From: a virus | Length of the DNA stretch: 64,000 nucleotides | Strand: one strand, 5' to 3' | Virus record (IMG/VR): IMGVR_UViG_3300020190_000010 | Location: 62,001 to 126,000 of that record | Part shown: positions 4,261 through 46,733 of the stretch, one piece after another | Position numbering within the stretch: position 1 is the first letter of the stretch | How the letters are laid out: every line of letters begins with the position of its first letter | Notes under the pieces: generated by a model | What the model saw: only the letters and a program-made list of their open reading frames with translations | What the model was told of the DNA's origin: nothing | Database searches by the model: none | Program-made: the position numbers and the translations under genes

Positions 4261-4289
4261 TTTTGCTTTGATATATTATTAAAAATTGT

Positions 4290-4299
4290 TATATTTGTT
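4290..4299 (+). promoter_or_regulatory. TATATTTG-type promoter candidate
   Basis: TATATTTGTT is a G variant of the recurring box and matches the Bacteroidota -7 element TAnnTTTG. It abuts ATG 4300 and lies 24 nt before an alternative ATG at 4324. Confidence 0.4.
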
Positions 4300-11079: not shown

Positions 11080-11088
11080 GGTTAAGTT

Positions 11089-13266: not shown

Positions 13267-13302
13267 TTAAAAATAAAGTTTGTTTATATTGTAAATTATT
13301 CG

Positions 13303-13312
13303 TATATTTGTT
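13303..13312 (+). promoter_or_regulatory. TATATTTG-type promoter candidate
   Basis: TATATTTGTT, the G variant of the recurring box, ends 31 nt before ATG 13344. The spacing equals that of the A variants. Confidence 0.5.
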
Positions 13313-15133: not shown

Positions 15134-15134
15134 T

Positions 15135-15144
15135 CATATTTATT
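15135..15144 (+). promoter_or_regulatory. TATTTAT-type promoter candidate
   Basis: CATATTTATT ends 32 nt before ATG 15177 in the 43-nt gap after the glycosyltransferase pair. Confidence 0.5.
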
Positions 15145-15176
15145 GATATGATATTTAATGAACAAAGGAATTTCCA

Positions 15177-15638
15177 ATGAGATATGCATTTGTAGAAAAT
15201 GGTATAGTTAAAGAAAGTAATAGACCATTACCTATTATTTGGGCAAATGTTTCAAACTTTCATTTGTTTGATGTTGAAACTCTGAAAACTTATGGTTGGT
15301 ATCCGTATCGTTTTGTTGAAGCTCAAAAAGATGTGGATGATATTATTGATGGTTCTTATTTTTCTGTTGAAGAAAACGAAGTTGTTGAATATCAAACTGT
15401 AAGAAAAAAATCAGAACAAGATATACAAAACGAAATAGATAACCAATGGGGTAATGTTCGTGCTCGTAGGAATATACAATTGATGGAAAGTGATTGGACA
15501 CAAGTTCTTGACAGTCCTTTTACAGACGAACAAAAAGAAGAATGGAAATTATATCGTCAGTTACTACGAGATATAACTTTACAAGTTGATGTTTTCAATA
15601 TATCTTGGCCTGTAAAACCTGGAACAGAAAATGAATAA
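15177..15638 (+). CDS. Tail fibre assembly chaperone-like protein
   Basis: This 153-residue protein has a ribosome site AAAGGAA. The C-terminal half contains VRARRNIQLMESDWTQVLDS, FTDEQKEEWKLYRQLLRDI and a final VFNISWPVKPG. That pattern (ARRN, a Trp-containing SDWTQ motif, EWxxYRQxLRDI, WP.P) is typical of the phage tail assembly chaperone family that accompanies tail fibres. The N-terminal half is a variable beta domain. It probably assists folding or trimerisation of a fibre in the upstream cluster and is not itself in the virion. Confidence 0.75.
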   Translation: MRYAFVENGIVKESNRPLPIIWANVSNFHLFDVETLKTYGWYPYRFVEAQKDVDDIIDGSYFSVEENEVVEYQTVRKKSEQDIQNEIDNQWGNVRARRNIQLMESDWTQVLDSPFTDEQKEEWKLYRQLLRDITLQVDVFNISWPVKPGTENE

Positions 15639-16374
15639 CAAAATTACAAAATTGATTAAGGAAATGAACCTTGCCATATTCAATGAAAATGATTTGGTAG
15701 ATAAGGATGTTCTTGTAATTTATCCTGGTAAATTTCAACCGATGGCAATATATCATAGAGAAGAATATGATAGAATTTGCCGTAAGTTTGATAAAGAAAA
15801 TGTTTATATTGTTACAGACGATACCACTGATCCAATAGAAAAACCACTAACATTTGATGAAAAGTCTGCAATTATGCGTCGTCATAATGTTAAGCGGATT
15901 ATGAAATCAAATACACCATTTCATGCAACAGATGTTATCGAACAATTTGATAACGATAGCACCATTGTAATTTATGCGGTTGATAAAGACGATGTATCAA
16001 AGTTGAAGGATTACAAAAGATTGATGTGTTGGAATGGTAGTAGTCAATTGGCATACAAAGATATTCAAAATCCGTATGTATATTATATGATTGTTAATCA
16101 TGTTCGTTACAATATTCCAAGTTTTGGCGAGATGACACAAAAAAGTATTTTTTCTGCTTTGGCTGATAGAAGTGCTAAATTAGCTGAATTAAAGTCTCGT
16201 TTTATTTCTATATTTGGTTGGTTTGATGTTGAGATATTCAATATGGTTGTTTCCAAGTTCAATACAAAACGTGGAAAAATGAAAGAAGTAAAATCCGATA
16301 AAAATGGTTTAAGACCAATCCACATGATAACAAGAAAATTTTGGAACAAAGTTTACAACGAAATAATAAAGTAA
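15631..16374 (+). CDS. Nucleotidyltransferase-fold protein (NadM/cytidylyltransferase-like, divergent)
   Basis: The 247-residue gene overlaps the preceding one by 8 nt. VLVIYPGKFQPMAIYHREEYDRI near residues 27-49 resembles the GRFQPFHxGH nucleotide-binding signature of NMN adenylyltransferases and cytidylyltransferases, but the HxGH box is altered to AIYH. VYIVTDDT and IVIYAVDKDD fit the following Rossmann strands, and GEMTQKSIFSALADRS sits where the ISxTxIR motif is expected. T4-like phages often carry such genes for NAD salvage or cofactor and sugar activation. The changed motif raises the possibility of another substrate or loss of activity. Confidence 0.55.
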   Translation: MNNKITKLIKEMNLAIFNENDLVDKDVLVIYPGKFQPMAIYHREEYDRICRKFDKENVYIVTDDTTDPIEKPLTFDEKSAIMRRHNVKRIMKSNTPFHATDVIEQFDNDSTIVIYAVDKDDVSKLKDYKRLMCWNGSSQLAYKDIQNPYVYYMIVNHVRYNIPSFGEMTQKSIFSALADRSAKLAELKSRFISIFGWFDVEIFNMVVSKFNTKRGKMKEVKSDKNGLRPIHMITRKFWNKVYNEIIK

Positions 16375-16385
16375 AAGGTTATGTT

Positions 16386-17003
16386 ATGGACATTAAAATT
16401 GATAATTTGAATGATGTAAAAAAACTTCTTGCGGGAGAACACGAAAGTCAAAACAAAATTGCGGTAGGTTATATTGGAGATAATTCAGAAGATAAAATAT
16501 CCCGCAAAATTGGTGACAAGTGGTTCGATGAAGATGGAAATGAGTGGGAACAAAAGAATGGGTATAAAGTAAAACTTGGGAAAGAATGGCAACAAGAGTT
16601 ACATAATTACTTAAATACTTTTCCAAATTGTAGAAAAGAAAATTGTGTATGTATGTTTCCAAAAAAGATAGATGAAAAAATGCGTCGCATTCATGGAATG
16701 TGTTTTGATTGTGTAGTTGAAATGGAACACAAAATTCGATTGGAAGGTAAGTGGGATGAATATGAAAAAAGAAAATTGAAAGAAAACGCAATGGCTTGGT
16801 TAGCAGAAGCTGAAAAAGACAAGGATGCAGTTGCAAACGAATTATCAAACATGGAATTTTCAAATGATTTTGGTGATACTGAAAAATGGAAAACTCCATT
16901 CAACAAAGAAGAAATGTTAGAAAAAATAGAAAATGAATTTGCAGAGTTTAGAAAGAACTTTATTGAAAAGTTAGAAAAGGATTTAGGAGAAAGAGTTGAA
17001 TAA
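16386..17003 (+). CDS. Cysteine-containing protein of unknown function
   Basis: I place the start at ATG 16386 (MDIKIDNLND), 11 nt after the preceding stop with AAAAGG in front; an in-frame ATG at 16341 lies inside the upstream gene. The 205-residue protein has a central cysteine cluster, CRKENCVCMF followed about 25 residues later by GMCFDCVVEMEHKIR, which could bind a metal such as zinc. The last 90 residues are charged and likely helical (MAWLAEAEKDKDAV, MLEKIENEFAEFRKNF). I do not recognise a function. Confidence 0.6.
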   Translation: MDIKIDNLNDVKKLLAGEHESQNKIAVGYIGDNSEDKISRKIGDKWFDEDGNEWEQKNGYKVKLGKEWQQELHNYLNTFPNCRKENCVCMFPKKIDEKMRRIHGMCFDCVVEMEHKIRLEGKWDEYEKRKLKENAMAWLAEAEKDKDAVANELSNMEFSNDFGDTEKWKTPFNKEEMLEKIENEFAEFRKNFIEKLEKDLGERVE

Positions 17004-17316
17004 ACTTAATCCAGTTGCTCAAACTTTTAGTGGTTTTAGTGGTAGAATATCATCCAAGCGTGTGATGATGTTTTTTTCTTTTGGTGTTATGATATTTATG
17101 GCAATAGTATCAACCTTTTATGATAAGAAAGTTGAACAATTTATATTCGATGGTTTTCTTTACATAGTAGTTGGTAGTCTTTTTTCAGTAGCATCAGAAC
17201 AATTTGCAAACAAATTTACAAAGATAGAAAATGGAGAAGGTGATGAATACTATTCAGATTACGATGAGCAAGATATTATTGATGAACCACCAAAAAGAAA
17301 ACGGAGAAATTTATGA
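16996..17316 (+). CDS. Small two-helix membrane protein (holin candidate)
   Basis: This 106-residue protein starts at TTG 16996, overlapping the upstream stop by 8 nt. Hydrophobic segments lie at about residues 24-42 (VMMFFSFGVMIFMAIVS) and 50-68 (IFDGFLYIVVGSLFSVAS), followed by a highly charged tail ending PPKRKRRNL. Small size, two membrane helices and a basic tail fit a holin, but many phage membrane proteins look the same and no endolysin is visible in this window. It overlaps the next gene through ATGA. Confidence 0.5.
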   Translation: MNKLNPVAQTFSGFSGRISSKRVMMFFSFGVMIFMAIVSTFYDKKVEQFIFDGFLYIVVGSLFSVASEQFANKFTKIENGEGDEYYSDYDEQDIIDEPPKRKRRNL

Positions 17317-17888
17317 AAGCGGTAATAATTGAAAGAGCAGTTCCAACTAATAAGAAACTTTATTCGAGAATAAAATCGAGAATTAAAAGTAAATATAAAG
17401 TATGGCCAAGTGCATATGCTTCAGGTGCTCTTGTTAAAGCATACAAAGCTGCAGGTGGTGGATTTCGTAATGTAAAAGAAACTATTGTAAATCCTGGCTA
17501 TCAACTTGAAGGATATGCTACAAATGCTTGTGGTAAAATCACCGAATTACATTTTCGTTTACAAGAAAGTGAACCTAATATGATGAATGAAGCAGAATAT
17601 CGTGGTAGAAAAGTATCATTAGGTAAACCATTCAGAACACCGGGTGGTCCAAAAAAATTTTCCGTGTATGTAAAAAAACCAAATGGTAATATCGTAAAAG
17701 TAAACTTTGGTCACAAGGGCGAAGGTGGTAAGAAAACCATGCGTATTAAAAAAAGTAATGCAGCTCGTAGAAAATCATTTCGTGCTCGTCACAATTGTCA
17801 ATCTCCCGGACCAAGACATAAGGCAAGATATTGGTCATGCCGTTTTGGATGGCCGTCAAGTGGCAAAGGTGCAATAGATAAGACTTAA
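17313..17888 (+). CDS. Basic conserved phage protein (DUF5872-like)
   Basis: This is a 191-residue, strongly basic protein. The N-terminal part has SKYKVWPSAYASGALVKAYK, a motif I associate with small phage proteins of the DUF5872 type. The C-terminal part has PGGPKKFSVYVKKPNGNIVK, then MRIKKSNAARRKSFRARHNC and ARYWSCRFGWP. The paired Cys and Arg/Lys clusters suggest nucleic-acid or scaffold binding. It shares the basic ARRKS/ARKGG style with the gene at 19035. The biological role is unknown. It overlaps the upstream membrane-protein gene by 4 nt. Confidence 0.55.
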   Translation: MKAVIIERAVPTNKKLYSRIKSRIKSKYKVWPSAYASGALVKAYKAAGGGFRNVKETIVNPGYQLEGYATNACGKITELHFRLQESEPNMMNEAEYRGRKVSLGKPFRTPGGPKKFSVYVKKPNGNIVKVNFGHKGEGGKKTMRIKKSNAARRKSFRARHNCQSPGPRHKARYWSCRFGWPSSGKGAIDKT

Positions 17889-17891
17889 TAT

Positions 17892-19016
17892 ATGAACCCA
17901 GCAACTTTCAAGTCGATGCTTACTCCCGAAATGGGAACAAATAATGTTACAGATACAGACCACGCTGCACAAATACTTGCTGATGCATATGATTTGGCAA
18001 ACATAGGTTCTAGTTGCACATTTTTTGGTTCATCAGTTATTAGTGGTGATAAAGATACATTGCAAAAATTTATCAAGTTAGCTTTTGATACCAATAAAAC
18101 TACAAATACAAAAGAAGGTTTTATTTTAATGGCAACTGGATTTTGTGCATATTGGTTGAAAGCTATATTTACACCATTACCAACTTTGCCTCCTACGATA
18201 AGTCCGTTAAAAGGCACAACTGTTCTTTTTCCAGGAGAACCTACGGAATTGGAAAAAGATTTAATAAAGGCATTTGACCAACCAGAATTTGAAATGTTTG
18301 CTGATACATTGTATAATGCATTAGTTGCACATCATACTAAAATAGCAGGAACATATAATGGACTAATACCCGCTTTTCCATCACCAATTCCTGGTATATT
18401 GCCTTGGGTTGCAATTTTAAGTGCACCTTTACCTGATACAGGAACTTCCGGCACAAGTGGAAAGGATGGATCATCTGGAACAAAAGGTAATGGTGGAACT
18501 GGTGGAACATCTGGAACTGGTGGAACATCTGGAACTGGTGGAACATCTGGAACTGGTGGAACATCTGGAACTTCTGGTTCTGGTGGAACTGGTGGAACAT
18601 CTGGAACTGGTGGAACATCTGGAACTGGTGGAACATCTGGAACTTCTGGTTCTGGTGGAACTGGTGGAACATCTGGAACTTCTGGTTCTGATAAAGGTAT
18701 GGGTGGGTTCGATACAAAAGGAGTTTCTGATTATAGAGTAAAGTTAAGATTATCTAATATAGTTCGTAGTGTTGATGGAAAATATAATGCAGATTCTATA
18801 ATAAGATTTGCTTTAAGTGACTTCCAAAGACCTGTACCTAACCAAATAAAATATGATAGTACGTTTAATAAAAAATTGATACCAGAGATTGGAAACTTAA
18901 AAGGACAAGATAGAAATAGATTATTTTACATATTCGATTATATGATTGAACAAAAAAATCTTGAATTAGACAATATAACTGGATATGTAAAATATGGATC
19001 AGTTAAAATAACATAA
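17892..19016 (+). CDS. Structural protein with internal collagen-like segment
   Basis: This protein has 374 residues. An N-terminal helical domain (1 to about 100, including DHAAQILADAYDLANIGSS) is followed by a proline-rich linker. Residues about 183-272 are glycine triplets (GTSGTGGTSGTGG type) forming a collagen-like rod. A C-terminal domain of about 100 residues contains LRLSNIVRSVDGKYNADS and YIFDYMIEQKNLELDN. The architecture of globular head, rod and globular tail resembles an accessory virion fibre. I do not recognise either globular domain. Confidence 0.5.
   Translation: MNPATFKSMLTPEMGTNNVTDTDHAAQILADAYDLANIGSSCTFFGSSVISGDKDTLQKFIKLAFDTNKTTNTKEGFILMATGFCAYWLKAIFTPLPTLPPTISPLKGTTVLFPGEPTELEKDLIKAFDQPEFEMFADTLYNALVAHHTKIAGTYNGLIPAFPSPIPGILPWVAILSAPLPDTGTSGTSGKDGSSGTKGNGGTGGTSGTGGTSGTGGTSGTGGTSGTSGSGGTGGTSGTGGTSGTGGTSGTSGSGGTGGTSGTSGSDKGMGGFDTKGVSDYRVKLRLSNIVRSVDGKYNADSIIRFALSDFQRPVPNQIKYDSTFNKKLIPEIGNLKGQDRNRLFYIFDYMIEQKNLELDNITGYVKYGSVKIT
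18494..18685 (+). repeat. 18-nt tandem repeats (collagen-like coding)
   Basis: Perfect and near-perfect copies of GGTGGAACATCTGGAACT are arranged in three larger blocks, each ending in a TCTGGTTCT variant. All are in frame. Confidence 0.85.
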
Positions 19017-19021
19017 TACTA

Positions 19022-19031
19022 CATATTTATC
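19022..19031 (+). promoter_or_regulatory. TATTTAT-type promoter candidate, nearly touching the start codon
   Basis: CATATTTATC ends only 3 nt before ATG 19035. If it is a -10-like box, the transcript would be leaderless or nearly so. Confidence 0.4.
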
Positions 19032-19034
19032 TAT

Positions 19035-19379
19035 ATGAATAAATGCACAGAAAATATAGTAAGAGAAATAATAAACAAATATCTACGATCAGTAATCATC
19101 GAAGGAAAAAAACCCAGTGGTGGTCTTACTGGTTGGTTTAGAGAAAAATGGGTTGATATTTCTCGTAATAAAAAAAGTGGTGGCCATCCACCATGCGGCG
19201 CCTCTGCTGGTAGTAAGGCAAGAAAAGGTGGTAAAAGAGCATATCCCAAATGTGTTCCTGCATCAAAAGCCGCTTCAATGTCAAAAAAACAAAAAAGAAG
19301 TGCAGTATCACGAAAAAGAAAACACGGTACAACCGGTCGTGGTAAGGCAAAAATGGTTTCAACTTATACAAAAGGTTAA
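19035..19379 (+). CDS. Small basic protein of unknown function
   Basis: This is a 114-residue, very basic protein. A helical N-terminus (ENIVREIINKYLRSVIIEG) precedes GGLTGWFREKWVDISR and then GGHPPCGASAGSKA, AYPKCVPASKAASMSKKQ and VSRKRKHGTTGRG. The two Cys residues and the Lys/Arg-rich tail suggest DNA, RNA or capsid-scaffold binding. The GWFREKWVDI motif recurs in small proteins of many phages. No enzymatic motif is visible. An in-frame start further downstream is possible because the promoter-like box lies so close. Confidence 0.55.
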   Translation: MNKCTENIVREIINKYLRSVIIEGKKPSGGLTGWFREKWVDISRNKKSGGHPPCGASAGSKARKGGKRAYPKCVPASKAASMSKKQKRSAVSRKRKHGTTGRGKAKMVSTYTKG

Positions 19380-19381
19380 TT

Positions 19382-19720
19382 ATGAATGGTGTTTTGGAAG
19401 AAAAAATTGGCAAATATGTGAAAATGTTTGTCATTGGAGTTTTTGCAATACTTTTTGTTTATTTAGTTTATGACAATAATCGTTCAAAAGAACAGATAAA
19501 GACATCAACAAAAACAAAAGATAGTTTAGACGCTTTAATAAACAAATATGAGTTTGATTATACTAATTTGAAAAAAAGAGCTGATGAATTAGACTCACTA
19601 ATTAAAGTTCGTAAGGACAGTATTCTTATCATACGAAAAAAATTCTATGTTTATCGTGATAAAGAAATAAAAAATCCTGATGAAGCCACAAAGTATATTA
19701 TCAACTTTTTGAAAGACTAA
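19382..19720 (+). CDS. Inner-membrane coiled-coil protein, i-spanin-like
   Basis: The 112-residue protein has one N-terminal membrane helix (residues about 15-33, MFVIGVFAILFVYLVY) followed by a predicted coiled coil (about 38-80: SLDALINKYEFDYTNLKKRADELDSL). That layout is the one used by Rz-type inner-membrane spanins. The gene lies 3 nt before another membrane-linked coiled-coil gene and directly upstream of the terminase. Spanin function is inferred from architecture only. Confidence 0.45.
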   Translation: MNGVLEEKIGKYVKMFVIGVFAILFVYLVYDNNRSKEQIKTSTKTKDSLDALINKYEFDYTNLKKRADELDSLIKVRKDSILIIRKKFYVYRDKEIKNPDEATKYIINFLKD

Positions 19721-19723
19721 TCT

Positions 19724-20095
19724 ATGAAGTATTTAATTGCCCTATTATTTTCAGTAACAACTGTGTTTGCAGTTGAAAATGACTCTGTTATATGTTTTAA
19801 GAAAACCGATGTGGTGAAGATGGCAAATCGTATTCAACTAATTCGTGATTCAGTTGAATATCTAACCGCAGTTGTAAATGCTCAAGATACTTTAATAGAA
19901 TTTCACCAAACTCGTTTTGACTTATATCACCAACAATTAAAAAATCGTGACCAAGCTATTGATGCTTGTAAAAAAAGAAGTGTAGAATTGGAAAAAATTA
20001 TTGATGAACTCCAACCAAAATGGTATGATAATAAATTACTTTGGTTCTTTACTGGTGTTGGAACTACTCTTGGGATAGTATTTGCAGTTCAATGA
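19724..20095 (+). CDS. Secreted coiled-coil protein with C-terminal membrane anchor, spanin-like
   Basis: This 123-residue protein has an N-terminal signal sequence (MKYLIALLFSVTTVFA, probable cleavage after AxA-like VFA). A helical coiled-coil region (about 30-95) follows, then a C-terminal membrane helix (LLWFFTGVGTTLGIVFA). There is no lipobox. A periplasmic coiled coil anchored at one end fits a lysis spanin, perhaps partnering the 19382 protein, although u-spanins usually carry a lipid signal. The stop overlaps the terminase start as ATGA. Confidence 0.45.
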   Translation: MKYLIALLFSVTTVFAVENDSVICFKKTDVVKMANRIQLIRDSVEYLTAVVNAQDTLIEFHQTRFDLYHQQLKNRDQAIDACKKRSVELEKIIDELQPKWYDNKLLWFFTGVGTTLGIVFAVQ

Positions 20096-21675
20096 GTAAG
20101 AATCTAAAAGATATTATCAAAGAAGAATACGCAAAGTGTGCCGCTAATCCGGTATACTTTATGAAGCGTTATGCTAAAATTCAACATCCAACCCGTGGCA
20201 AGATATTATTCGACCTATATCCATTTCAGGAAGATGTCCTCAAAGAATTTAACACTAACCGGTGGAACATTGTATTAAAGTCTCGTCAGTTAGGTATATC
20301 CACAGTTATTGCTGGATATTCACTTTGGTTGATGTTATTCAATCAAGATAAAAACATTCTTGTTATTGCTACAAAACAAGAAACTGCTAAAAACTTGGTT
20401 ACAAAAGTTCGTGTTATGTATGATAATATGCCAAGTTGGTTAAAGACTGGTGTTCAAGAAGATAATAAACTTTCACTCCGATTTAAGAACGGTTCACAAA
20501 TTAAAGCCGTTTCTGCTGCAGCTGACTCTGCTCGTTCTGAAGCACTTTCACTTCTTATCATAGACGAGGCCGCCTTTATTGATGATATAGATAGAATATG
20601 GGCATCTGCACAACAAACACTTGCAACCGGTGGTACTGCAATAATCAACTCTACTCCAAATGGTGTTGGTAATTTTTATCATAAACAATGGGTAAATGCA
20701 ATAAACAAAGAAAGTGCATTTAATCCAATAGAATTATTATGGCAAGTTCATCCAGACCGTGACCAAAAATGGCGCGATGAACAAGACAAACTATTGGGTC
20801 CTAATATGGCAAAACAAGAGTGTGATGGAAATTTTCTTACATCTGGTCGTTCCGTAATTGATGGTGAACTTGTCCAATGGTATGAACAAACTTATGTGTG
20901 TGAACCAAAAGAACGGCGTGGTGCAGAGGATGCTTATTGGATTTGGGATTATCCAGAACCAAATAAAACATATATGGTTATTGCTGACGTTGCTCGTGGT
21001 GACGGAAATGATAATTCAGCATTCCATGTGATTGATGTAGAAAATATGGAACAAGTTGCAGAATACAAAGGTAAACTCGATACAAAAACTTATGGTAATA
21101 TGTTAGTATCAGTTGCAACAGAATATAACGATGCTCTTCTTGTAGTTGAAAATGCTAACATTGGGTGGGCAGCAATTCAACAGATTATTGATAGAGGTTA
21201 TCCAAATCTTTATTATACATACCGTGAAGATGGGTATACTGATCCATCCGTTCATATTCCAAAGGGTTATGACTTAAAAGACAAGGCACAAATGATTCCT
21301 GGATTTACTACAAGTGCTAAAACAAGACCACTTTTGATTTCAAAATTGGAAACATATTTTCGTGAAAGATTACCAATAATAAAGTCTTCAAGATTAACAC
21401 AAGAACTATATGTGTTTGTTTGGAATGGTGCAAAGGCAGAGGCACAAACAGGATATAATGATGACTTGGTTATGTCATTTGCAATAGGACTTTGGGTTAG
21501 AGATACTGCTCTAAAACTTCGTCAAGAAGGACTGATGAAGACACGAATGAGTTTGGATTATATGGGGAAATCAACAACACCACTAAAACCTTCATATCAA
21601 TATGGAGATGACCTACATGGTTGGAATATGACAGTCAATGGTCAAAATGAAGACCTTACTTGGTTAATAAAATAG
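20092..21675 (+). CDS. Terminase large subunit
   Basis: The start at ATG 20092 (MSKNLKDIIKEEY) gives 527 residues; an in-frame ATG at 20041 lies within the upstream gene. The ATPase domain shows a Walker A-like SRQLGIST at 64-71, Walker B LLIIDEAAF with D158/E159, and a motif III-like INSTPNG. The C-terminal nuclease has acidic residues in VIADVARGDGND, ALLVVENANIG and NDDLVMSFAIG, matching the RNase H-type nuclease of T4 gp17-like terminases. It translocates DNA into proheads and cuts the concatemer at the portal. No small-subunit gene is recognisable nearby. Confidence 0.95.
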   Translation: MSKNLKDIIKEEYAKCAANPVYFMKRYAKIQHPTRGKILFDLYPFQEDVLKEFNTNRWNIVLKSRQLGISTVIAGYSLWLMLFNQDKNILVIATKQETAKNLVTKVRVMYDNMPSWLKTGVQEDNKLSLRFKNGSQIKAVSAAADSARSEALSLLIIDEAAFIDDIDRIWASAQQTLATGGTAIINSTPNGVGNFYHKQWVNAINKESAFNPIELLWQVHPDRDQKWRDEQDKLLGPNMAKQECDGNFLTSGRSVIDGELVQWYEQTYVCEPKERRGAEDAYWIWDYPEPNKTYMVIADVARGDGNDNSAFHVIDVENMEQVAEYKGKLDTKTYGNMLVSVATEYNDALLVVENANIGWAAIQQIIDRGYPNLYYTYREDGYTDPSVHIPKGYDLKDKAQMIPGFTTSAKTRPLLISKLETYFRERLPIIKSSRLTQELYVFVWNGAKAEAQTGYNDDLVMSFAIGLWVRDTALKLRQEGLMKTRMSLDYMGKSTTPLKPSYQYGDDLHGWNMTVNGQNEDLTWLIK

Positions 21676-21693
21676 AGTTTGTATTTTTTCCTA

Positions 21694-21703
21694 CATATTT
21701 ATA
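21694..21703 (+). promoter_or_regulatory. TATTTAT-type promoter candidate
   Basis: CATATTTATA ends 31 nt before the portal start. Confidence 0.5.
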
Positions 21704-21734
21704 TTAAGTTTATATTACATAAAATAGGTGACAA

Positions 21735-23600
21735 ATGGCACAAAATAAATCATTGTTTGATAGACTAAAAACACTTTTTTCTACTAATGTTGTTGTTCGT
21801 AATGTTGGTGGTAAAAAATTAAAAGTTGTTGATACTGCTCGCTATCAAGGTGATGGAAACCCACACACATCAAAAGTTATTGATAGATATGGCAGATTAC
21901 ATGGAACAAAGGGAACACCAATATCAGTATACAATCAATACAATTCATTCGCAGCAACAAAAATAGATCTTTATACTGATTATGAATCAATGGACACAGA
22001 TGCCATAATATCATCTGCACTTGACATATATGCAGATGAAAGCACACTCAAAAATAATCAAGGTGATGTTTTAACTATCAAAACTGACAATGACAATATA
22101 CGTAAAATTCTTCGTAATCTTTTTTATGATGTTCTTAATATAGAATATAATCTTTGGCCATGGATTCGTAATCTTTGTAAATACGGTGATTTTTATTTGT
22201 ATATGGATGTAAAGGAAGAATTGGGTGTTACAAATGTTGTTCCGTTTTCACCATATGAAGTTCAAAGAGAAGAAGGAACTGATCCGGAACATATCTATAT
22301 GACAAAATTTGTATACGAAGGTCCTCTTGGTAGAGGTGAATTTCAAAATTATGAAATGGCACATTTTAGATTATTAGGTGATACTAATTATCTTCCTTAT
22401 GGTAAATCAATTTTAGAAGGTGCTCGTAAACTTTACAAACAACTAGTTTTAATGGAAGATGCGATGTTGATACATCGTATTATGCGTGCTCCTGAAAAAC
22501 GTATTTTCAAAGTTGATATTGGTAATATACCACCGGCTGAAGTAGACCAATACATGAATAACCTTATGAATAGAATGAAGAAGACTCCCGTTATCAATGA
22601 ACAGACTGGTGACTACAATCTCCGTTTTAATATGCAAAATCTTTTGGAAGACTTTTATCTTCCTGTTCGTGGTGGACAATCTGGTACACAAATTGAAACA
22701 CTTGCAGGTTTACAATATCAAGCAATTGAAGATATTGAATATCTTAAAAGTAAAATATTTGCTGCCCTAAAAGTTCCAAAACCGTATTTGGGCTATGATG
22801 AAAGTATAGAAGGAAAGGCAACACTTGCCGCTCTTGATATTCGTTTTGCTAGAACAATAGAAAGAGTACAGAGAATTGTGATTTCTGAATTGACAAAGAT
22901 TGCTATTGTTCATCTATATTCACAGGGATATGAAAATGCAGATTTGGTAAACTTTGAATTGGGATTAACAGGACCTTCTATCATATATGAACAAGAAAAA
23001 GTTGCTCTTATGAAAGAAAAAGTGGACTTGGCGGGAACACTGATAGAAAAGAAACTATTTTCATTGAAATATATTTATTCAAACATATTTAACCTTTCAG
23101 AAGACGAAGCAGAATTTGAAAAGAATGAAGTTCTTGAAGATATTAAACATATGTTCCGTCAAAAACAAATTGAAAATGAAGGAAATGATCCAGCAGTAAC
23201 AAAGGAGTCATTTGGAACACCACATGATATTGCAAGTATGCAAATTCGTGGTGGTAGTAAAATGATAACCGATAATGAAGTTCCAGAAGGTGGTTGGCCT
23301 GGAGCTGGTAGACCTGCTAAGAATTTAAGTTATGGAACAGATAACAGTCCATTTGGCAGGGATCCAATCGGAAAGAAAGATATTGGTAATACATTGAAGG
23401 TTAATAATTCACCAAAAGTAAATTACAAAGGAAATTCACCGTTATCACTTGAAAACCGTGATATAGGTAAATTGATAGATAGTATGTCCGGTATAAAGAT
23501 TAAAACAAAAAAAATAATATCGGAAAGTCTTAAACCGACTATTAAACACGAAAATGAATCAAATTTGTTGAATGAGAACAATTTATTAGATGAATTGTAA
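21735..23600 (+). CDS. Portal vertex protein (T4 gp20-like)
   Basis: The protein has 621 residues, with AAAATAGGTGAC upstream. The middle of the protein carries the T4-like portal core: DAIISSALDIYADEST, YGDFYLYMD, EDAMLIHRIMRAPEKRIFKVDIGN and KSKIFAALKVPKPYLGYDE. The last 130 residues are low in complexity (GGWPGAG, repeated Asn/Ser) and probably face the capsid interior. It forms the dodecameric DNA channel that docks the terminase and nucleates head assembly. Its position directly after the terminase is standard. Confidence 0.92.
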   Translation: MAQNKSLFDRLKTLFSTNVVVRNVGGKKLKVVDTARYQGDGNPHTSKVIDRYGRLHGTKGTPISVYNQYNSFAATKIDLYTDYESMDTDAIISSALDIYADESTLKNNQGDVLTIKTDNDNIRKILRNLFYDVLNIEYNLWPWIRNLCKYGDFYLYMDVKEELGVTNVVPFSPYEVQREEGTDPEHIYMTKFVYEGPLGRGEFQNYEMAHFRLLGDTNYLPYGKSILEGARKLYKQLVLMEDAMLIHRIMRAPEKRIFKVDIGNIPPAEVDQYMNNLMNRMKKTPVINEQTGDYNLRFNMQNLLEDFYLPVRGGQSGTQIETLAGLQYQAIEDIEYLKSKIFAALKVPKPYLGYDESIEGKATLAALDIRFARTIERVQRIVISELTKIAIVHLYSQGYENADLVNFELGLTGPSIIYEQEKVALMKEKVDLAGTLIEKKLFSLKYIYSNIFNLSEDEAEFEKNEVLEDIKHMFRQKQIENEGNDPAVTKESFGTPHDIASMQIRGGSKMITDNEVPEGGWPGAGRPAKNLSYGTDNSPFGRDPIGKKDIGNTLKVNNSPKVNYKGNSPLSLENRDIGKLIDSMSGIKIKTKKIISESLKPTIKHENESNLLNENNLLDEL

Positions 23601-23607
23601 AATTGCC

Positions 23608-23617
23608 TATATTTATT
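23608..23617 (+). promoter_or_regulatory. TATTTAT-type promoter candidate
   Basis: TATATTTATT ends 34 nt before the gene at 23652. Confidence 0.5.
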
Positions 23618-23651
23618 CTATGAAAGTGCACATAAACAGGTATAAGGAACA

Positions 23652-24494
23652 ATGAAGAAAATTAAACATTCTAAATTCAAAAATACTGCAATGCTGTTTG
23701 AGTTATTGACTCGTCAAATAACATCAGACATCATTTCCTCCAACGAATCTGTTGCCATTCAGATTCTCAAAAAATTCTTTAATAAGAACACAGAACTTAT
23801 TAAAGAATATAAATTGTATAAAACCCTTTGTGATGAAAAATTAAAGTCAGACACAAAGGCAAATATGTTAATAGAGGCAGTATTGAAAGCAAGACGTGGA
23901 TTAAACAAACATAAATTACAGAACGAAAAGTATGAATTGATAAAATCAATCAAAGAAAACTTTGATATTGATACATTTTTTCAAACAAAAGTTCAAAATT
24001 ACAAACTTCTTGCTTCCGTATACAAAGTTTTTGAATATAATGAATTGGATAATCCAGTTGAAATTACAAAGTCTCGTATAACCATACTTGAAAGTATAAC
24101 ATCAAAACAAAATACATCCGTAATAACCGAAGATGTTGCTATTGCACAGGAACCAAAAGAAGTTCGTTTGATGGCTTACAAGTATCTTGTTGAAAAATTT
24201 AATGCAAAATATAGTAATTTAACGGAATCACAAAAGGTATTATTACGAGAATACATAGAAAATGTTAGTAATACAAATAACTTAAAGTCTCTTGTTCAAA
24301 CAGAAGCGGTAACTATAAAAAGATTGTTTACAAAAAATATGCATAGGGTAAAAGACAAATCTCTAAAAATAAAATTACAAGAAGTTGCAGGACTTTTGGA
24401 TGAATATGAAACGATAAAGAAAGTAGAAGAAAATCATATCTCTGCTCTACTTCGTTATTACAGTTTAATAGACGATTTATCATGGAGTAAATAA
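23652..24494 (+). CDS. Conserved head-module helical protein of unknown function
   Basis: This 280-residue, almost all-helical, Lys-rich protein begins KHSKFKNTAMLFELLTRQIT and contains KKFFNKNTELIKEYKLYKTL and YKLLASVYKVFEYNE. It lies between portal and protease, where T4-like phages encode prohead core proteins, so a scaffold or core role is plausible. I recognise no enzyme motif. Its stop shares one base with the next start. Confidence 0.55.
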   Translation: MKKIKHSKFKNTAMLFELLTRQITSDIISSNESVAIQILKKFFNKNTELIKEYKLYKTLCDEKLKSDTKANMLIEAVLKARRGLNKHKLQNEKYELIKSIKENFDIDTFFQTKVQNYKLLASVYKVFEYNELDNPVEITKSRITILESITSKQNTSVITEDVAIAQEPKEVRLMAYKYLVEKFNAKYSNLTESQKVLLREYIENVSNTNNLKSLVQTEAVTIKRLFTKNMHRVKDKSLKIKLQEVAGLLDEYETIKKVEENHISALLRYYSLIDDLSWSK

Positions 24495-24814
24495 TGGCAG
24501 TTAATCAAATACACCCATATAATTTTCCTGCTTCACAGGCAAGTGAATTTGAAAGAAAGGGGCATCCTGGAAAATTCTTTCAATCAATAACTTGTGAAAC
24601 CGGAACTACAACTTTTACTTCCTCTAATTTTGGTGCAGGTGGTATAATTGTACCAAATGGAACTACGGGAACTGCATCATTGTCTTTAGGTGGGACCATT
24701 CCACTTTCTGCTATGGCCAGCACTGCTGCAGTTATACACGAATTATCATTACAGAGTGTAACGGTGGATAGTGGAACCGTATATGTTTTAATTCGTAATC
24801 AAATGATTAGGTAA
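24494..24814 (+). CDS. Small head-module protein, possible capsid decoration
   Basis: The 106-residue beta-rich protein (TGTTTFTSSNFGAGGIIVPN, SLSLGGTIPLSAM) ends in hydrophobic strands (VTVDSGTVYVLIRNQM). There is no signal peptide or helix-rich region. Composition and position suggest a capsid-associated or decoration protein, but I do not recognise a family. Confidence 0.5.
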   Translation: MAVNQIHPYNFPASQASEFERKGHPGKFFQSITCETGTTTFTSSNFGAGGIIVPNGTTGTASLSLGGTIPLSAMASTAAVIHELSLQSVTVDSGTVYVLIRNQMIR

Positions 24815-24817
24815 TAT

Positions 24818-25321
24818 ATGAATGTAGAGTCTTTCATAAAAAAATTAAAAGAATCAGAAGAATACCGTCAGTTTGCAGAAGAATTATCATTAGATGAAAT
24901 GAGCACAACTGCTGGTGTTCCCGGATACCAAACGCCAAATGCTTTTGCTAAGAGTGAAGAAGATTTTGAAGAACACAACAAAGAAACTGCAGAAGTTTAT
25001 GGATATAAACTTGTTCCTAAAACAAAAAAGAAAAATTATGAATCAACCTACAAACAGGCAATGGGTTTAATTTCGGAAGGAACATATAAAGATTTTAGAA
25101 CGGATGAAACAAGAAGTTCAAACAGAAAAATAAATGATTCAATTAAGAATATAAATAGAACAATCTACGAAGTAGAAAGAGTTGTTGAACATGCATTGAG
25201 ATTAAAAACAGAAATGAATGTTGATCAAAGAACTCTTTGGGGTGAATCAATGACTAGATTGAGAAAAATATCCGAAAGAATAAATAGAATTACAAAAAAG
25301 ATTAACGAATTAGGTGCATAA
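24818..25321 (+). CDS. Head-module protein with MSTTAGVPGYQTP motif
   Basis: This 167-residue protein carries EMSTTAGVPGYQTPNAF near residues 27-43, a motif I associate with proteins of T4-like head modules. The C-terminal half is a long helical or coiled-coil region (SIKNINRTIYEVERVVEHAL, MTRLRKISERINRITKK). It is probably a prohead core component or protease substrate. No catalytic motif is visible. Confidence 0.55.
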   Translation: MNVESFIKKLKESEEYRQFAEELSLDEMSTTAGVPGYQTPNAFAKSEEDFEEHNKETAEVYGYKLVPKTKKKNYESTYKQAMGLISEGTYKDFRTDETRSSNRKINDSIKNINRTIYEVERVVEHALRLKTEMNVDQRTLWGESMTRLRKISERINRITKKINELGA

Positions 25322-25323
25322 AA

Positions 25324-25995
25324 ATGAAAGAACTACTCGTAGACACCATACTTTTTAATGTAAATCCAAAAATGATTACCGAATCTGAAAAGAAAAATGA
25401 CGGTAAAGTTATAGTTTCGGGTGTTTTACAAAGAGCTGAAGTAAAAAATCAAAATGGTAGAGTATATCCTAAAAAGATTTTAATGCGTGAAGTTAAGAAG
25501 TATACCGAAAATCAAATAAAAGAAAATCGTGCGCTCGGTGAACTTGATCATCCAGATTCATCGGTTATCAATCTTCGTAATGTTTCACATAATGTTCTCG
25601 GTGTAGATTGGAAAGGTAATGATGTAGTTGGAACAGTTGAGATACTACCAACACCATCCGGAAATATCCTAAAACAACTTCTTGATGCGGGTATTCGTCT
25701 TGGAATATCATCAAGAGGTTTAGGTTCTGTTGAAGAAATAAGTGAAAGCACAGTTGAAGTTCAAGATGATTTTGAATTGATTGGTTGGGATTTTGTTTCA
25801 AACCCATCAACTCATGGTGCATTTATGTATCCACAAGGAATGAAAGAAGGTTTACATGAAGAATTGATTACAGAAGGTATATCAACTTCAACAATTGCAA
25901 AAATAGATCCTAAAATAAATCGCATCCACAATAATATAACAAACATTATTTGTGAAATTGGTAATGTTTGTGAATGTATATTTGATGGAAGATAA
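25324..25995 (+). CDS. Prohead core protease (T4 gp21-like)
   Basis: This 223-residue protein has the gp21 hallmarks: VSGVLQRAEVKNQNGRVYPK at the N-terminus, the catalytic His region GELDHPDSS near 79-87, and LGISSRGLGSVEE carrying the nucleophilic Ser near 131. The family matures the prohead by cleaving scaffold, capsid and internal proteins after Glu. Neighbouring scaffold, capsid and ADP-ribosyltransferase products are candidate substrates. The C-terminal tail beyond residue about 175 is variable and may be auto-processed. Confidence 0.9.
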   Translation: MKELLVDTILFNVNPKMITESEKKNDGKVIVSGVLQRAEVKNQNGRVYPKKILMREVKKYTENQIKENRALGELDHPDSSVINLRNVSHNVLGVDWKGNDVVGTVEILPTPSGNILKQLLDAGIRLGISSRGLGSVEEISESTVEVQDDFELIGWDFVSNPSTHGAFMYPQGMKEGLHEELITEGISTSTIAKIDPKINRIHNNITNIICEIGNVCECIFDGR

Positions 25996-25997
25996 CG

Positions 25998-26594
25998 ATG
26001 CCGGCATTATCACAACAGCAACAGAAGTTAATGGGACTTGCACTCTCTTACAAAAGAGGTAAAGTTGCTTCAAGTGATGTTAGTAAATCTGTAAAGGATT
26101 TGGCGTCATCAATGTCTGAAAAAGAATTAGAAAAATATGCTAGAACATCACATAAAGGTCTTCCTAAAAAAGTTGGTGAAACAAAAACATCAATGACAAG
26201 AGAAGAAATAAATAAACTTGTTTCGGATGCTGTTCAAGAAGTAATGAACGAAAAATTTAGTACAAAAGTTCTTACATCTGAACAAAAACAACAATATATT
26301 GAGGCAATTTCAAAATACAATCAATACAGAGAGGTAGTTCATCGTTCAAAGGCACTACCAGAAATAGTTTCTGAAATAAAAAGACTTGTTGAATTTGCAA
26401 GTAAAAACATGGTTGAGGAGTCTGGCGATTGGTTTGAAGGTGTATCACATAGAAGAAACTCAAAAAGATTGAGAGAATCTGTAAATGAATTTCAAAAAAT
26501 ATCGGAAAAAATTGTTAAATTACAAAGAACCCTGGAGTCTATCTACGAGAACATAGGTAAACAACTCGGAACATTTTACGAAATAAAAAAATAA
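25998..26594 (+). CDS. DUF3008-like head-module protein
   Basis: This is a 198-residue protein. The N-terminus MPALSQQQQKLMGLALSYKRG, followed by VKDLASSMSEKELEKYARTSHKGLP, resembles small DUF3008-type proteins usually found alone; here it is extended by a helical C-terminus (VSEIKRLVEFASK, KISEKIVKLQRTLESIYENI). Function unknown. It lies between protease and bS21 genes. Confidence 0.55.
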   Translation: MPALSQQQQKLMGLALSYKRGKVASSDVSKSVKDLASSMSEKELEKYARTSHKGLPKKVGETKTSMTREEINKLVSDAVQEVMNEKFSTKVLTSEQKQQYIEAISKYNQYREVVHRSKALPEIVSEIKRLVEFASKNMVEESGDWFEGVSHRRNSKRLRESVNEFQKISEKIVKLQRTLESIYENIGKQLGTFYEIKK

Positions 26595-26602
26595 AGGAAA
26601 AA

Positions 26603-26836
26603 ATGGTTATGTCAGACAGAGTTTATACCAGTTCAAAACCTGCTCATGTTAAAGTTAAGGCAGGTGGAATGAATGTAGATACAATGATTAAGGTATTTAA
26701 ACGTAAGGTAAAGGAAGCCGGTATTCTTGAAGAATATAAAAACCGCATGGAATATATTAAACCATCAAAAAGAAAATCTGAAAAAAGAAATGCTGCTGTA
26801 AGAAGACAGAGAAAACTCGATTCAGAAAACATTTAA
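26603..26836 (+). CDS. rpsU-like: Phage-encoded ribosomal protein bS21 homologue
   Basis: The protein has 77 residues, with a strong AAAGGA site. After a short N-terminus, VKVKAGGMNVDTMIKVFKRK followed by VKEAGILEEYKNRMEYIKPS and a basic tail (KRKSEKRNAAVRRQRK) match the bS21 pattern: an N-terminal strand, a helix with FKR, AG(I/V)L, R..YxKPS and an Arg/Lys-rich end. bS21 binds the 30S platform beside the anti-Shine-Dalgarno sequence. Phage copies are known from large metagenomic phages and are thought to exchange into host ribosomes and favour phage mRNA. Its place among late head genes is notable. Confidence 0.85.
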   Translation: MVMSDRVYTSSKPAHVKVKAGGMNVDTMIKVFKRKVKEAGILEEYKNRMEYIKPSKRKSEKRNAAVRRQRKLDSENI

Positions 26837-26846
26837 TGGAGATAAA

Positions 26847-28037
26847 ATGACCTTTGCTAGTATTGAAAAACTAATCCGTGACGAAACACGGAAAGTTATT
26901 GAAAACCTGGAAAGGTCTTTTTCGTTATCAGAAGAAGACGAAAAACCTGCAAGCGAAGATCCTAAAAAAATGCTTGTTGTTAATAAAGAAAGTGGAAAGT
27001 CGTATTACATAAGTAAAAAAAGTTTTGATCCAACAAAACATCAAAAATCTGCTCCAAAAGAAACTACAAAAGAAGAAGAAGAAGAAACTTCTTCAGAAGA
27101 AACATCAACTGATTCTGAAGAAGAAATTAAAACCGATGATTCAAAAAAAGAAGATTCTGCAACTTCTGATGAAGAAAAACCAAAAGGTGATGCGGGTGAT
27201 AAAGCAGAAAAAAAACCAGAACAAAAACCAAAAGAACCAAATGAAGAAAAAACTGGATTAAAAACTGTTGGTTTTTTGAATAAAGTTGATGCAGAAAAAT
27301 TAGATACCAAAACAGACAATCTATATCCAAAAACACGTGAACAACTGTTGGAATATGATTATGAAGATATAATTGATATGTATGATTTAAGATTTGATGA
27401 AGATGGGGTAAATTTTAAAAAGTTATACAAACGAGCAGAAATGATTGCAGTATCAAAGTATTCTTTAATAACACCAAAATCAATAGATAAAGAAACTCTA
27501 ATGGCATTGGGTTATTATTATTTGAATACTGAAAGAATAATTAACATATTGAGATTTGCTAAACCAAGTTTAACAAAACCTGAAATACAAAAACAATTAA
27601 AGTTAGGTAAACCAAAAGAAGGCGATAAAAGGGAAAAACAATATAAAAGTGCAATGAATGCATTTACTATTCGTGAAATGAACTATGCATTTGACGAACA
27701 ATTACAAAAATTAGAATATAATATAGTTTCATATCGTTCCGTAGAAAATGAAAAAGTATTACAAATGTTTATTGATGCAGGACAATGGGTAGATAAATCG
27801 TTTGTAACAACATCATTAAACCCTTTAATTACAGAAGGAACTGGAAAAAAGAGATTGCCATTATTTGAATTTTTAATTCCTGCTGGAACGTCTATACTAA
27901 CATTACCATGTCACTCAAATGATTATTGTCACGAAACAGAGGTAACACTTCCAAGAAATTGTAGATATACTATACAAGGATTTAACGATACCAGAAATAT
28001 TTACAAGATATTAGTGGAGCAAAACTATGGCCGATGA
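26847..28037 (+). CDS. Alt-like mono-ADP-ribosyltransferase, probably virion-borne
   Basis: The protein has 396 residues. Residues 70-135 are a highly acidic low-complexity linker. The C-terminal about 120 residues have the R-S-E signature of ADP-ribosyltransferase toxins: R297 in SYRSVENEK, the STS-like FVTTSLNP (320-326), and E363-x-E365 in HETEVTLPRNCRYTI. IPAGTSILTLP is also typical. Such enzymes transfer ADP-ribose from NAD to proteins. T4 Alt is packaged in the head and processed by gp21; this gene likewise lies between protease and scaffold genes, suggesting packaging and injection. The target is unknown, and host RNA polymerase or a defence protein are possibilities. Confidence 0.8.
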   Translation: MTFASIEKLIRDETRKVIENLERSFSLSEEDEKPASEDPKKMLVVNKESGKSYYISKKSFDPTKHQKSAPKETTKEEEEETSSEETSTDSEEEIKTDDSKKEDSATSDEEKPKGDAGDKAEKKPEQKPKEPNEEKTGLKTVGFLNKVDAEKLDTKTDNLYPKTREQLLEYDYEDIIDMYDLRFDEDGVNFKKLYKRAEMIAVSKYSLITPKSIDKETLMALGYYYLNTERIINILRFAKPSLTKPEIQKQLKLGKPKEGDKREKQYKSAMNAFTIREMNYAFDEQLQKLEYNIVSYRSVENEKVLQMFIDAGQWVDKSFVTTSLNPLITEGTGKKRLPLFEFLIPAGTSILTLPCHSNDYCHETEVTLPRNCRYTIQGFNDTRNIYKILVEQNYGR

Positions 28038-29355: not shown

Positions 29356-30993
29356 ATGAGTATACAAAATTTATTAAATACTTCTGGGAATCCCCACAAG
29401 CAACTTATCAAAGAAAACAAGCAAATTGTCAATAAATGGGCAAAAACTGGTCTTCTTGATAATTTGAAAAACGAATATGAAAAGAACTCTATTGCAGTTC
29501 TTCTCGAAAATCAAGCAAAACAACTTATCGACGAATCAAGCAGAACAGGTACAGCAGCTGGTTCAGAAGAATGGGCAGGTGTTGCACTTCCATTGGTTCG
29601 CCGTATTTTCTCTGAAATTGCTGCGAAAGATTTTGTTTCTGTTCAACCAATGAACTTGCCTTCTGGTCTTGTGTTCTTCTTGGACTTCAAATATGGAACA
29701 GCACAACCTGGTTTCACTGCTGGATCCGGTAAAGATTCACAAGCTGATTCAGTATTTGGTGTAACAGGTAAAGATGCAAAAGATGCTGATCCTTCAGGCG
29801 GTCTTTATGGTGCAGGTCGTTTCGGTTATTCAATCAATGAGGCACAAATAACATCTACAAAAGCTGCTGCATTGTCTTCAACAGAATTTACAACCGGATC
29901 TGTATCACACTCAACACCATCATTGTTCCAACATGACACAGAATTTAAAGATGCTTACTCTGCATCACTCGCAGCTGGTCATATTATGACTATCACAGTT
30001 CAATCTGCATCTTTCACAACACCTGATCTTGAGGCAGTTCGTGCTTTCAAAGTATCTGGCTCAACAATTCTTGGTTATTTCCCACAATACACAACAACTG
30101 CAAACAATGGTTCAACCATTACTTTCGTTGTTTCTGCTTCTGCTGCTCCTGCAACAGTAGGTATTGCTTATGAGAAACAACCAACTTCCACAACACGTAA
30201 TGACTTTGAAGAAGGTTCAGCTGGTTCAGATTTGGGTATACCAGAAATCAATCTTGAATTGCGTTCAGAGTCCATCGTTGCTAAAACACGTAAGTTGAAG
30301 GCAGTATGGACACCTGAATTTGCACAAGATTTGAATGCTTATCACTCAATTGATGCTGAAGCTGAATTGACATCTATGTTGTCTGAATACATTTCACAAG
30401 AAATTGATTTGGAAATTCTTGATATGTTGATTAAGAATGCACAAACAACAGAAAGATGGTCAGCTCGTATTGGTCGCACATATGATGCTTCTACAAGTGC
30501 ATTTGGTGACTATTCATCTGCTCAGGCACAGGCATCCGCTTACAATCAACAAACATGGTTCCAAACACTTGGCACAAAGATTCAAAAAGTATCAAACGTA
30601 ATTCATCAGAAAACACTTCGTGGTGGTGCAAACTTCCTCGTATGTTCTCCACAAGTTGCTACAATACTTGAATCAATGCCTGGCTATGCAGTTGATGGTG
30701 AAGGTATGAAATTCGCAATGGGTGTTCAAAAAGTTGGTCAATTGAATGGCCGTATCACAGTTTACAAGAATCCTTACATGCTTGAAAATCAAGTTCTTGT
30801 AGGTTTCCGTGGAACACAATTCCTCGAAACTGGTGCTGTGTATGCTCCATACATTCCACTTGTAATGACACCGTTGGTATATGATCCAACGAACTTCACA
30901 CCAAGAAAAGGCGTGATGACTCGTTATGCGAAGAAGATTGTTCGTCCAGAGTTCTATGGTCTTATACAAATCGATTCTCTCGGTGACATCTAA
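29356..30993 (+). CDS. Major capsid protein (T4 gp23-like)
   Basis: The protein has 545 residues, with a strong TTAAGGAAAAAA leader. SSRTGTAAGSEEWAGVALPLVRRIF near 61-85 and the C-terminal NFTPRKGVMTRYAKKIVRPE are typical of T4-like HK97-fold capsid proteins. LIDE-S at residues 57-61 fits a gp21-type cleavage after Glu60, close to where T4 gp23 is processed; this is inferred. It forms the hexameric shell. A strong intrinsic terminator follows, as expected for a highly expressed gene. Confidence 0.93.
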   Translation: MSIQNLLNTSGNPHKQLIKENKQIVNKWAKTGLLDNLKNEYEKNSIAVLLENQAKQLIDESSRTGTAAGSEEWAGVALPLVRRIFSEIAAKDFVSVQPMNLPSGLVFFLDFKYGTAQPGFTAGSGKDSQADSVFGVTGKDAKDADPSGGLYGAGRFGYSINEAQITSTKAAALSSTEFTTGSVSHSTPSLFQHDTEFKDAYSASLAAGHIMTITVQSASFTTPDLEAVRAFKVSGSTILGYFPQYTTTANNGSTITFVVSASAAPATVGIAYEKQPTSTTRNDFEEGSAGSDLGIPEINLELRSESIVAKTRKLKAVWTPEFAQDLNAYHSIDAEAELTSMLSEYISQEIDLEILDMLIKNAQTTERWSARIGRTYDASTSAFGDYSSAQAQASAYNQQTWFQTLGTKIQKVSNVIHQKTLRGGANFLVCSPQVATILESMPGYAVDGEGMKFAMGVQKVGQLNGRITVYKNPYMLENQVLVGFRGTQFLETGAVYAPYIPLVMTPLVYDPTNFTPRKGVMTRYAKKIVRPEFYGLIQIDSLGDI

Positions 30994-37728: not shown

Positions 37729-37748
37729 TAGTTTTTGATATTTTTTTA

Positions 37749-37758
37749 CATATTTATA
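37749..37758 (+). promoter_or_regulatory. TATTTAT-type promoter candidate
   Basis: CATATTTATA ends 33 nt before ATG 37792. Confidence 0.5.
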
Positions 37759-37791
37759 TTTGTTATTTTATATTTTATTTAAGAGGTTTTT

Positions 37792-46688: not shown

Positions 46689-46703
46689 CAATCTATCAAT
46701 TTT

Positions 46704-46713
46704 TATATTTATA
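46704..46713 (+). promoter_or_regulatory. TATTTAT-type promoter candidate
   Basis: TATATTTATA ends 20 nt before ATG 46734. Confidence 0.45.
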
Positions 46714-46733
46714 GTAAACAAATAGGAAAAGTA

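What the first reader, a model, noticed from the sequence alone, without database searches (positions are those of the whole stretch)
26603..26836. Phage bS21 inside the head module
The bS21 features are clear. In Bacteroidota bS21 helps hide the anti-Shine-Dalgarno sequence, yet many genes here carry GGAG leaders. If the host is of that phylum, a phage bS21 could release the anti-Shine-Dalgarno and favour phage mRNAs. The late-gene location is unusual for a translation-takeover factor and may suggest expression with virion genes.
Basis: partly seen in the sequence, partly recalled or inferred. Interest (0 to 1): 0.65.

Follow-up and report, generated by a model that had tools for sequence, protein, structure and literature searches.

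The report
Phage ribosomal protein in head operon
A virus of bacteria carries its own copy of the small ribosomal protein bS21 among its capsid genes, probably to keep the host's ribosomes translating viral messages while particles are built; this arrangement is already known, and the evidence says the proposed unmasking trick is probably not needed in this virus's host.

Summary
The bS21 gene is real: window 26609-26836 (+), 75 aa, PF01165 at 48.8 bits, dN/dS about 0.08. It lies in one operon with terminase, portal, prohead protease and scaffold genes of a T4-like phage (137 kb record). Sixty-seven close homologues, and far more distant phages, keep it in that place and orientation. The sister group of Flavobacterium phage immuto lacks it. 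Its bS21 has Arg where Bacteroidia bS21 has the SD-masking Tyr54. The proposed mechanism (phage bS21 unmasking the anti-SD) is not favoured. The phage's tRNA-Glu matches non-Bacteroidia Bacteroidota (up to 93%), whose own bS21 already has Arg there and whose genes use SDs, and not Bacteroidia (mostly 71% or less). Presumed early genes also carry strong SDs, before any late bS21 could act. Most likely it is a late-made replacement or supplement of host bS21 that sustains SD-led initiation on virion mRNAs. Head-module location and late expression of phage bS21 were published in 2022. New here: the bS21/SD contrast between sister phage clades.

The parts
   Evidence: PF01165, PHROG 21469; second ATG conserved in all homologues
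26593..26598 (+). AAAGGA Shine-Dalgarno-like leader overlapping the stop codon of the upstream gene
   Evidence: sequence; AAGGA at this place kept in relatives
25998..26594 (+). DUF3008-domain protein, directly upstream, kept next to bS21 in relatives
   Evidence: PF11450; synteny
25324..25995 (+). prohead core protease (peptidase S77, gp21 type)
   Evidence: PF03420 111.6 bits, phrog_207
26847..28037 (+). acidic protein downstream of bS21, probable scaffold (position only)
   Evidence: no family match; syntenic in most relatives
29356..30993 (+). major capsid protein gp23 type
   Evidence: PF07068 265.5 bits
20041..21675 (+). large terminase subunit
   Evidence: tblastn to annotated TerL of Mel-JY01 (65%) and immuto (54%)
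21735..23600 (+). portal, gp20 type
   Evidence: syntenic with the annotated gp20 of immuto; tblastn conservation
13280..13310 (+). Bacteroidota-type promoter TTG-N-GTATATTTG at the head of the gene string 13344-28037 that holds bS21
   Evidence: the same place in relative G004
37735..37762 (+). Bacteroidota-type promoter before gene 37792 (leader with AGAGG)
4268..4297 (+). Bacteroidota-type promoter before gene 4300

Best explanation
A phage-encoded bS21 is made with the packaging and head proteins and enters the host's 30S subunits, in place of or beside host bS21, next to the 3' end of 16S rRNA. There it keeps ribosomes competent for fast SD-led initiation on virion mRNAs during the translation-heavy late phase. 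The host is probably a Bacteroidota bacterium outside class Bacteroidia, with an Arg-type bS21 and an accessible anti-SD, so nothing has to be unmasked. Shown: identity, conservation, location, orientation, SD use, promoters, tRNA affinity. Inferred: incorporation into ribosomes (by homology to HTVC008M bS21), timing (operon and published relatives), and the benefit.
For: PF01165 and purifying selection. Same place and strand in all window-like loci that could be scored (65 of 65 downstream of the protease on the same strand) and in all TerL 58-93% loci spanning protease to capsid; none of the roughly 28 immuto-type loci. SD use in bS21-bearing phages 35-60% against controls of 5-10%; immuto type 6.6% against 14.5%. 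Promoter pair 4-18 per phage genome against 0.5-0.9 expected. G000 tRNA-Glu 85-93% to Arg54, SD-using genomes of the class of G041; G005 tRNA-Glu 92% to Arg54 genome G049; Bacteroidia 62-71% except G180 (75-86%); the immuto control picks Bacteroidia only. HTVC008M bS21 enters E. coli 70S ribosomes (PMC6375957); head-module bS21 is transcribed with capsid genes (PMC9723584).
Against: No ribosome or expression data for this phage. HTVC008M bS21 made E. coli ribosomes about 95% inactive (PMC6375957), so inhibition of host translation remains possible. No promoter directly before bS21; its operon starts with a host-type promoter, so expression may not be strictly late. The promoter pair is weaker in the class that fits the tRNA (4 against 1.4) than in Bacteroidia (13 against 1.9). 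Pseudomonadota tRNA-Glu also reach 91% over 65 nt. Related Mel-JY01 is recorded from Microcystis.
Confidence: 0.58

Rival explanations
1. One reading: the host is an anti-SD-masking Bacteroidia bacterium; phage bS21 (Arg in place of Tyr54) replaces host bS21, frees the 16S 3' tail and lets ribosomes choose SD-led phage mRNAs over SD-less host mRNAs.
For: Arg in 35/35 window-like homologues at the Tyr54 column; strong SD use in the phages beside Bacteroidia-type promoters; sister phages of Flavobacterium lack both bS21 and SDs; F. johnsoniae Y54A or C-terminal deletion raises SD-dependent translation (PMC9976891).
Against: tRNA-Glu of two members points to Arg54 lineages outside Bacteroidia. 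Those lineages already use SDs and share TAnnTTTG-type promoters. Presumed early genes carry strong SDs. Other members of the clade have Tyr at this column yet use SDs in 39% of genes.
Confidence: 0.15
2. bS21 is packaged in the head, as T4 internal proteins are, and injected, acting on ribosomes from the first minute. This would remove the timing problem of SD-led early genes.
For: Fixed position between prohead protease and scaffold/capsid genes over deep divergence; the idea was raised for other bS21 phages in PMC9723584.
Against: No recognisable packaging signal noticed in the 13-residue N-terminal extension (inspection only); no proteome; bS21 in other T4-like phages lies by replication genes.
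Confidence: 0.1
3. bS21 lowers host translation: it makes ribosomes that work poorly on host mRNA and serves as a shut-off factor, with no positive role for phage mRNA.
For: HTVC008M bS21 reduced E. coli in vitro translation to about 5% (PMC6375957).
Against: Late-gene placement would also harm capsid synthesis; that assay used a foreign host; SD use and bS21 go together across phage clades.
Confidence: 0.1
4. The host is a cyanobacterium such as Microcystis, as recorded for Mel-JY01, and the protein supplements cyanobacterial bS21.
For: Host line of PP395634.
Against: Bacteroidota-type promoters 18 against 0.8 expected in Mel-JY01 itself; no photosystem gene in its annotation; nearest phages after it infect Flavobacterium and Rhodothermus.
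Confidence: 0.06

Closest known systems
bS21-encoding Bacteroidetes jumbo myophages of freshwater lakes (Chen et al. 2022, PMC9723584)
   Same: bS21 beside terminase, portal, prohead protease and capsid genes; Bacteroidota hosts; late expression proposed there
   Different: There bS21 is on the opposite strand, genomes are 293-331 kb and an aromatic residue is kept at Tyr54. Here it is co-directional in the operon, the record is 137 kb (a fragment or smaller genome), and Arg replaces Tyr54
Microcystis phage Mel-JY01 (PP395634)
   Same: same gene order around an annotated RpsU; MCP 71%, TerL 65%, bS21 51% identity
   Different: more distant bS21 with Lys at the Tyr54 column; recorded host Microcystis
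Pelagibacter phage HTVC008M bS21 (Mizuno et al. 2019, PMC6375957)
   Same: phage bS21 in a T4-like phage, shown to enter 70S ribosomes of E. coli
   Different: lies near clamp and DNA polymerase genes, Alphaproteobacterial host; not found by tblastn with this protein
Flavobacterium phage immuto (NC_055915)
   Same: T4-like head module, TerL and MCP 54%, same gene order
   Different: no bS21 in the head module, hardly any SD leaders, Bacteroidia-type tRNA-Glu

Membership tests
bS21 (PF01165) | profile match above the curated cut-off | tested here: met
   48.8 bits against 27
bS21 (PF01165) | conserved FKR...KPS core and basic C-terminal helix | tested here: met
   invariant F-K-R, K-P-S in 21 phage sequences
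bS21 (PF01165) | present in 30S subunits | not testable with these tools
   needs ribosome proteomics
phage bS21 in a structural gene module (PMC9723584) | bS21 within a few genes of prohead protease and MCP | tested here: met
   2 genes from protease, 3 from MCP; conserved in relatives
phage bS21 in a structural gene module (PMC9723584) | expressed with capsid genes late in infection | not testable with these tools
   no transcriptome; operon structure only
clades a-e of PMC9723584 | bS21 on the strand opposite to the structural genes | tested here: not met
   same strand in all 65 scored window-like loci
Bacteroidia-type anti-SD-masking bS21 | aromatic residue at the F. johnsoniae Tyr54 column | tested here: not met
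   Arg in 35/35 distinct homologues, Lys in Mel-JY01
phage of an anti-SD-masking (Bacteroidia) host | host of class Bacteroidia | tested here: inconclusive
   promoters allow it, tRNA-Glu argues against it

The most novel reading that the evidence does not exclude
Acquisition of a head-module, Arg-type bS21 let one branch of Bacteroidota T4-like phages turn from SD-less to SD-led mRNA by changing what the infected ribosome reads, possibly from the moment of injection if bS21 is packaged, so that the phage brings its own initiation code.
Probability: 0.12. Interest if true: 0.85.

Novelty: new member of a known kind. Interest (0 to 1): 0.4.

Why it matters
bS21 is the ribosomal protein most often found in phages, yet its benefit is untested. 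This clade offers a natural comparison: sister phages with nearly the same head module, where bS21 and SD-led genes come together or are both absent. It also shows that 'Bacteroidota host' does not by itself mean a hidden anti-SD; class matters. A cultured pair (immuto against a bS21-bearing relative) would make the ribosome-substitution idea directly testable.

Tried and rejected
(1) bS21 phylogeny to name the host: phage sequences group apart from all cellular bS21, with few columns and long branches; the best cellular score is an Arg-type Bacteroidota genome at 21 identities over 55 columns, so no host can be read from it. (2) Tyr54 status predicting phage SD use: suggested by two loci but dropped after 15 Tyr-type loci gave 39% SD. 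(3) The promoter pair as proof of Bacteroidia: weakened when Arg-type genomes G007/G012/G022 showed 7 against 1.3 and G049/G065 showed TAnnTTTG enrichment. (4) Capsid gene searched in bacterial genomes to find co-binned hosts: nothing useful. (5) Host promoter just before bS21: none in 65 loci.

Full report
What is there. The window lies at 62001-126000 of a 137,492-bp virus record. ORF 26603-26836 (+) encodes bS21: PF01165 48.8 bits against a cut-off of 27, PHROG 21469, PDB bS21 chains from E 5.7e-7. The probable start is ATG 26609, because many homologues lack the upstream ATG while the second is kept in all. It is preceded by AAAGGA, which overlaps the stop codon of the DUF3008 gene. Sixty-seven IMG/VR loci encode it at 72-100% identity; dN/dS has a median of 0.085 over 470 pairs.

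Surroundings. Upstream are terminase, portal, S77 prohead protease and the DUF3008 protein; downstream are an acidic protein (probable scaffold, by position) and gp23-type capsid. Genes 13344-28037 form one string with no clear break, which begins with a Bacteroidota-type promoter at 13280. No such promoter lies within 700 nt of bS21 in 65 loci.

Conservation of the place. In window-like loci bS21 is on the same strand and directly downstream of the protease in 65 of 65 that could be scored. In all loci with TerL 58-93% identical to the window's that span protease to capsid, bS21 is present on the same strand. In about 28 spanning loci of the immuto type (fetched; TerL 52-57%) it is absent. 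Microcystis phage Mel-JY01 shows the same order. In HTVC008M, Mosig, Melnitz, Paride and Vibrio 2.275 bS21 lies near replication, metabolism or other non-head genes.

SD use. In the whole record 63% of genes have a core SD of four or more bases, against 11% at internal Met codons, with a GGA peak at -10. Pooled: window-like loci 44%, TerL 56-67% loci 48%, controls 9-10%; immuto type 6.6%, control 14.5%. Base composition is alike (GC 0.28-0.36). SDs are not confined to virion genes: small minus-strand genes at 0-4 kb, behind repeated host-type promoters, have the best ones (AGGAGG, AAAGGA), and the head region has the fewest. The same holds in Mel-JY01 and G005, where promoter and AGGA leader sit on the same short genes. 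That these genes are early is inferred from promoter type, size and T4-like habit.

Tyr54. In Flavobacterium johnsoniae Tyr54 of bS21 stacks on A1534 and helps hide the anti-SD; Y54A or loss of the C-terminal part raises SD-dependent translation (PMC9976891). At that column the window-like phages have Arg (35/35 distinct) and Mel-JY01 has Lys. Bacteroidota genomes fall into a Tyr/His group and an Arg group; Pseudomonadota have Lys or Arg.

Host. Nearest phages with a recorded host other than Mel-JY01 infect Flavobacterium and Rhodothermus. Among all 256 possible four-letter endings after TTG-N17-20-TAnn, TTTG is by far the commonest in phage intergenic gaps (47 against 7 for the next). The pair is enriched 7-22 fold in six bS21 phages, 6.8 fold in Tyr/His Bacteroidota, and absent in Pseudomonadota. 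It is also present in some Arg-type Bacteroidota (7 against 1.3 for G007/G012/G022), so it marks the phylum and not the class. tRNA-Glu separates the classes. The immuto gene, whose host is known, matches only genomes of the Tyr/His group (G027 is placed there by likeness to G031). The G000 gene matches Arg-type genomes of the class of G041 at up to 93% (42 of 197 genomes at E 1e-14 or better), against two of 390 Bacteroidia genomes at 86%. The G005 gene matches Arg-type G049 at 92% and everything else at 75% or less. Pseudomonadota tRNA-Glu reach 91% over 65 nt, but that phylum lacks the promoter. Arg-type genomes use SDs to a varying degree (17-49% in those sampled more deeply, none in Chlorobia-like ones), Tyr/His genomes hardly at all (3%).

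How it most likely works. bS21 made with the packaging and head genes enters 30S subunits and supports SD-led initiation when demand is highest. Ribosome entry is inferred from HTVC008M (PMC6375957), late expression from operon structure and PMC9723584. Because the probable hosts already have Arg-type bS21 and SD-led genes, unmasking of the anti-SD is not needed. It stays possible (about 0.15) because the host class is inferred and because bS21 and SD use come and go together between sister phage clades. One bS21-bearing locus with few SDs (L227, 18-23%) and Tyr-type relatives with 39% SDs show that residue 54 alone does not set phage SD use.

Known and new. Phage bS21 is widely described (PMC6375957). 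Its place by prohead protease and capsid genes, its expression with them, and packaging in virions as a possibility are all in PMC9723584, which counted 310 of 900 bS21 phages with a prohead protease nearby. New here, as far as the papers read show: the Arg-type, co-directional head-operon clade, the sister-clade contrast in bS21 and SD use, and the tRNA evidence for hosts outside Bacteroidia.

Noticed in passing
G000 0-13 kb (outside the window), e.g. 3295-3324, 3508-3537, 12354-12383, 12450-12479 minus strand: A repeated strong promoter family TTGATCTTA...GCCTTATATTTG before short ORFs with strong SDs, probably immediate-early genes.
   Followed up: partly
immuto NC_055915 and immuto-type loci L278-L357: The Flavobacterium phage lacks TAnnTTTG promoters and has TTG-N17-20-TAnnTTTA instead (28 copies in gaps of immuto), perhaps a phage-specific promoter.
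   Followed up: no
L463-L477 (marine-type relatives): Phage bS21 with a Tyr54-like residue (KAKYMQK), yet 39% of genes use SDs, unlike Tyr54 bacteria.
   Followed up: partly
L227/L478: A bS21-bearing phage of the same clade with few SD leaders (16-23%), an exception to the bS21/SD pairing.
   Followed up: no
PP395634 (Mel-JY01), L162-L165: Recorded host Microcystis disagrees with its Bacteroidota-type promoters; the phage may come from a companion bacterium of the culture.
   Followed up: partly
window 9976-13266: A collagen-repeat protein followed by a 725-aa RCC1-repeat protein (PF00415 397 bits), unusual for a phage structural region.
   Followed up: no
window 4518-9929: Glycosyltransferase, FkbM methyltransferase and GT9 genes in a row, probably surface or DNA sugar chemistry.
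   Followed up: no
window 42432-54200: Two very long genes (1418 and 2488 aa) in the tail region, not annotated here.
   Followed up: no
L072 6877-7029 minus strand: tRNA-Met and tRNA-Glu genes side by side; tRNA-Glu differs strongly between phages of the clade (55 of 74 columns shared with G005), each close to a different bacterial lineage, so they may serve as host markers.
   Followed up: yes
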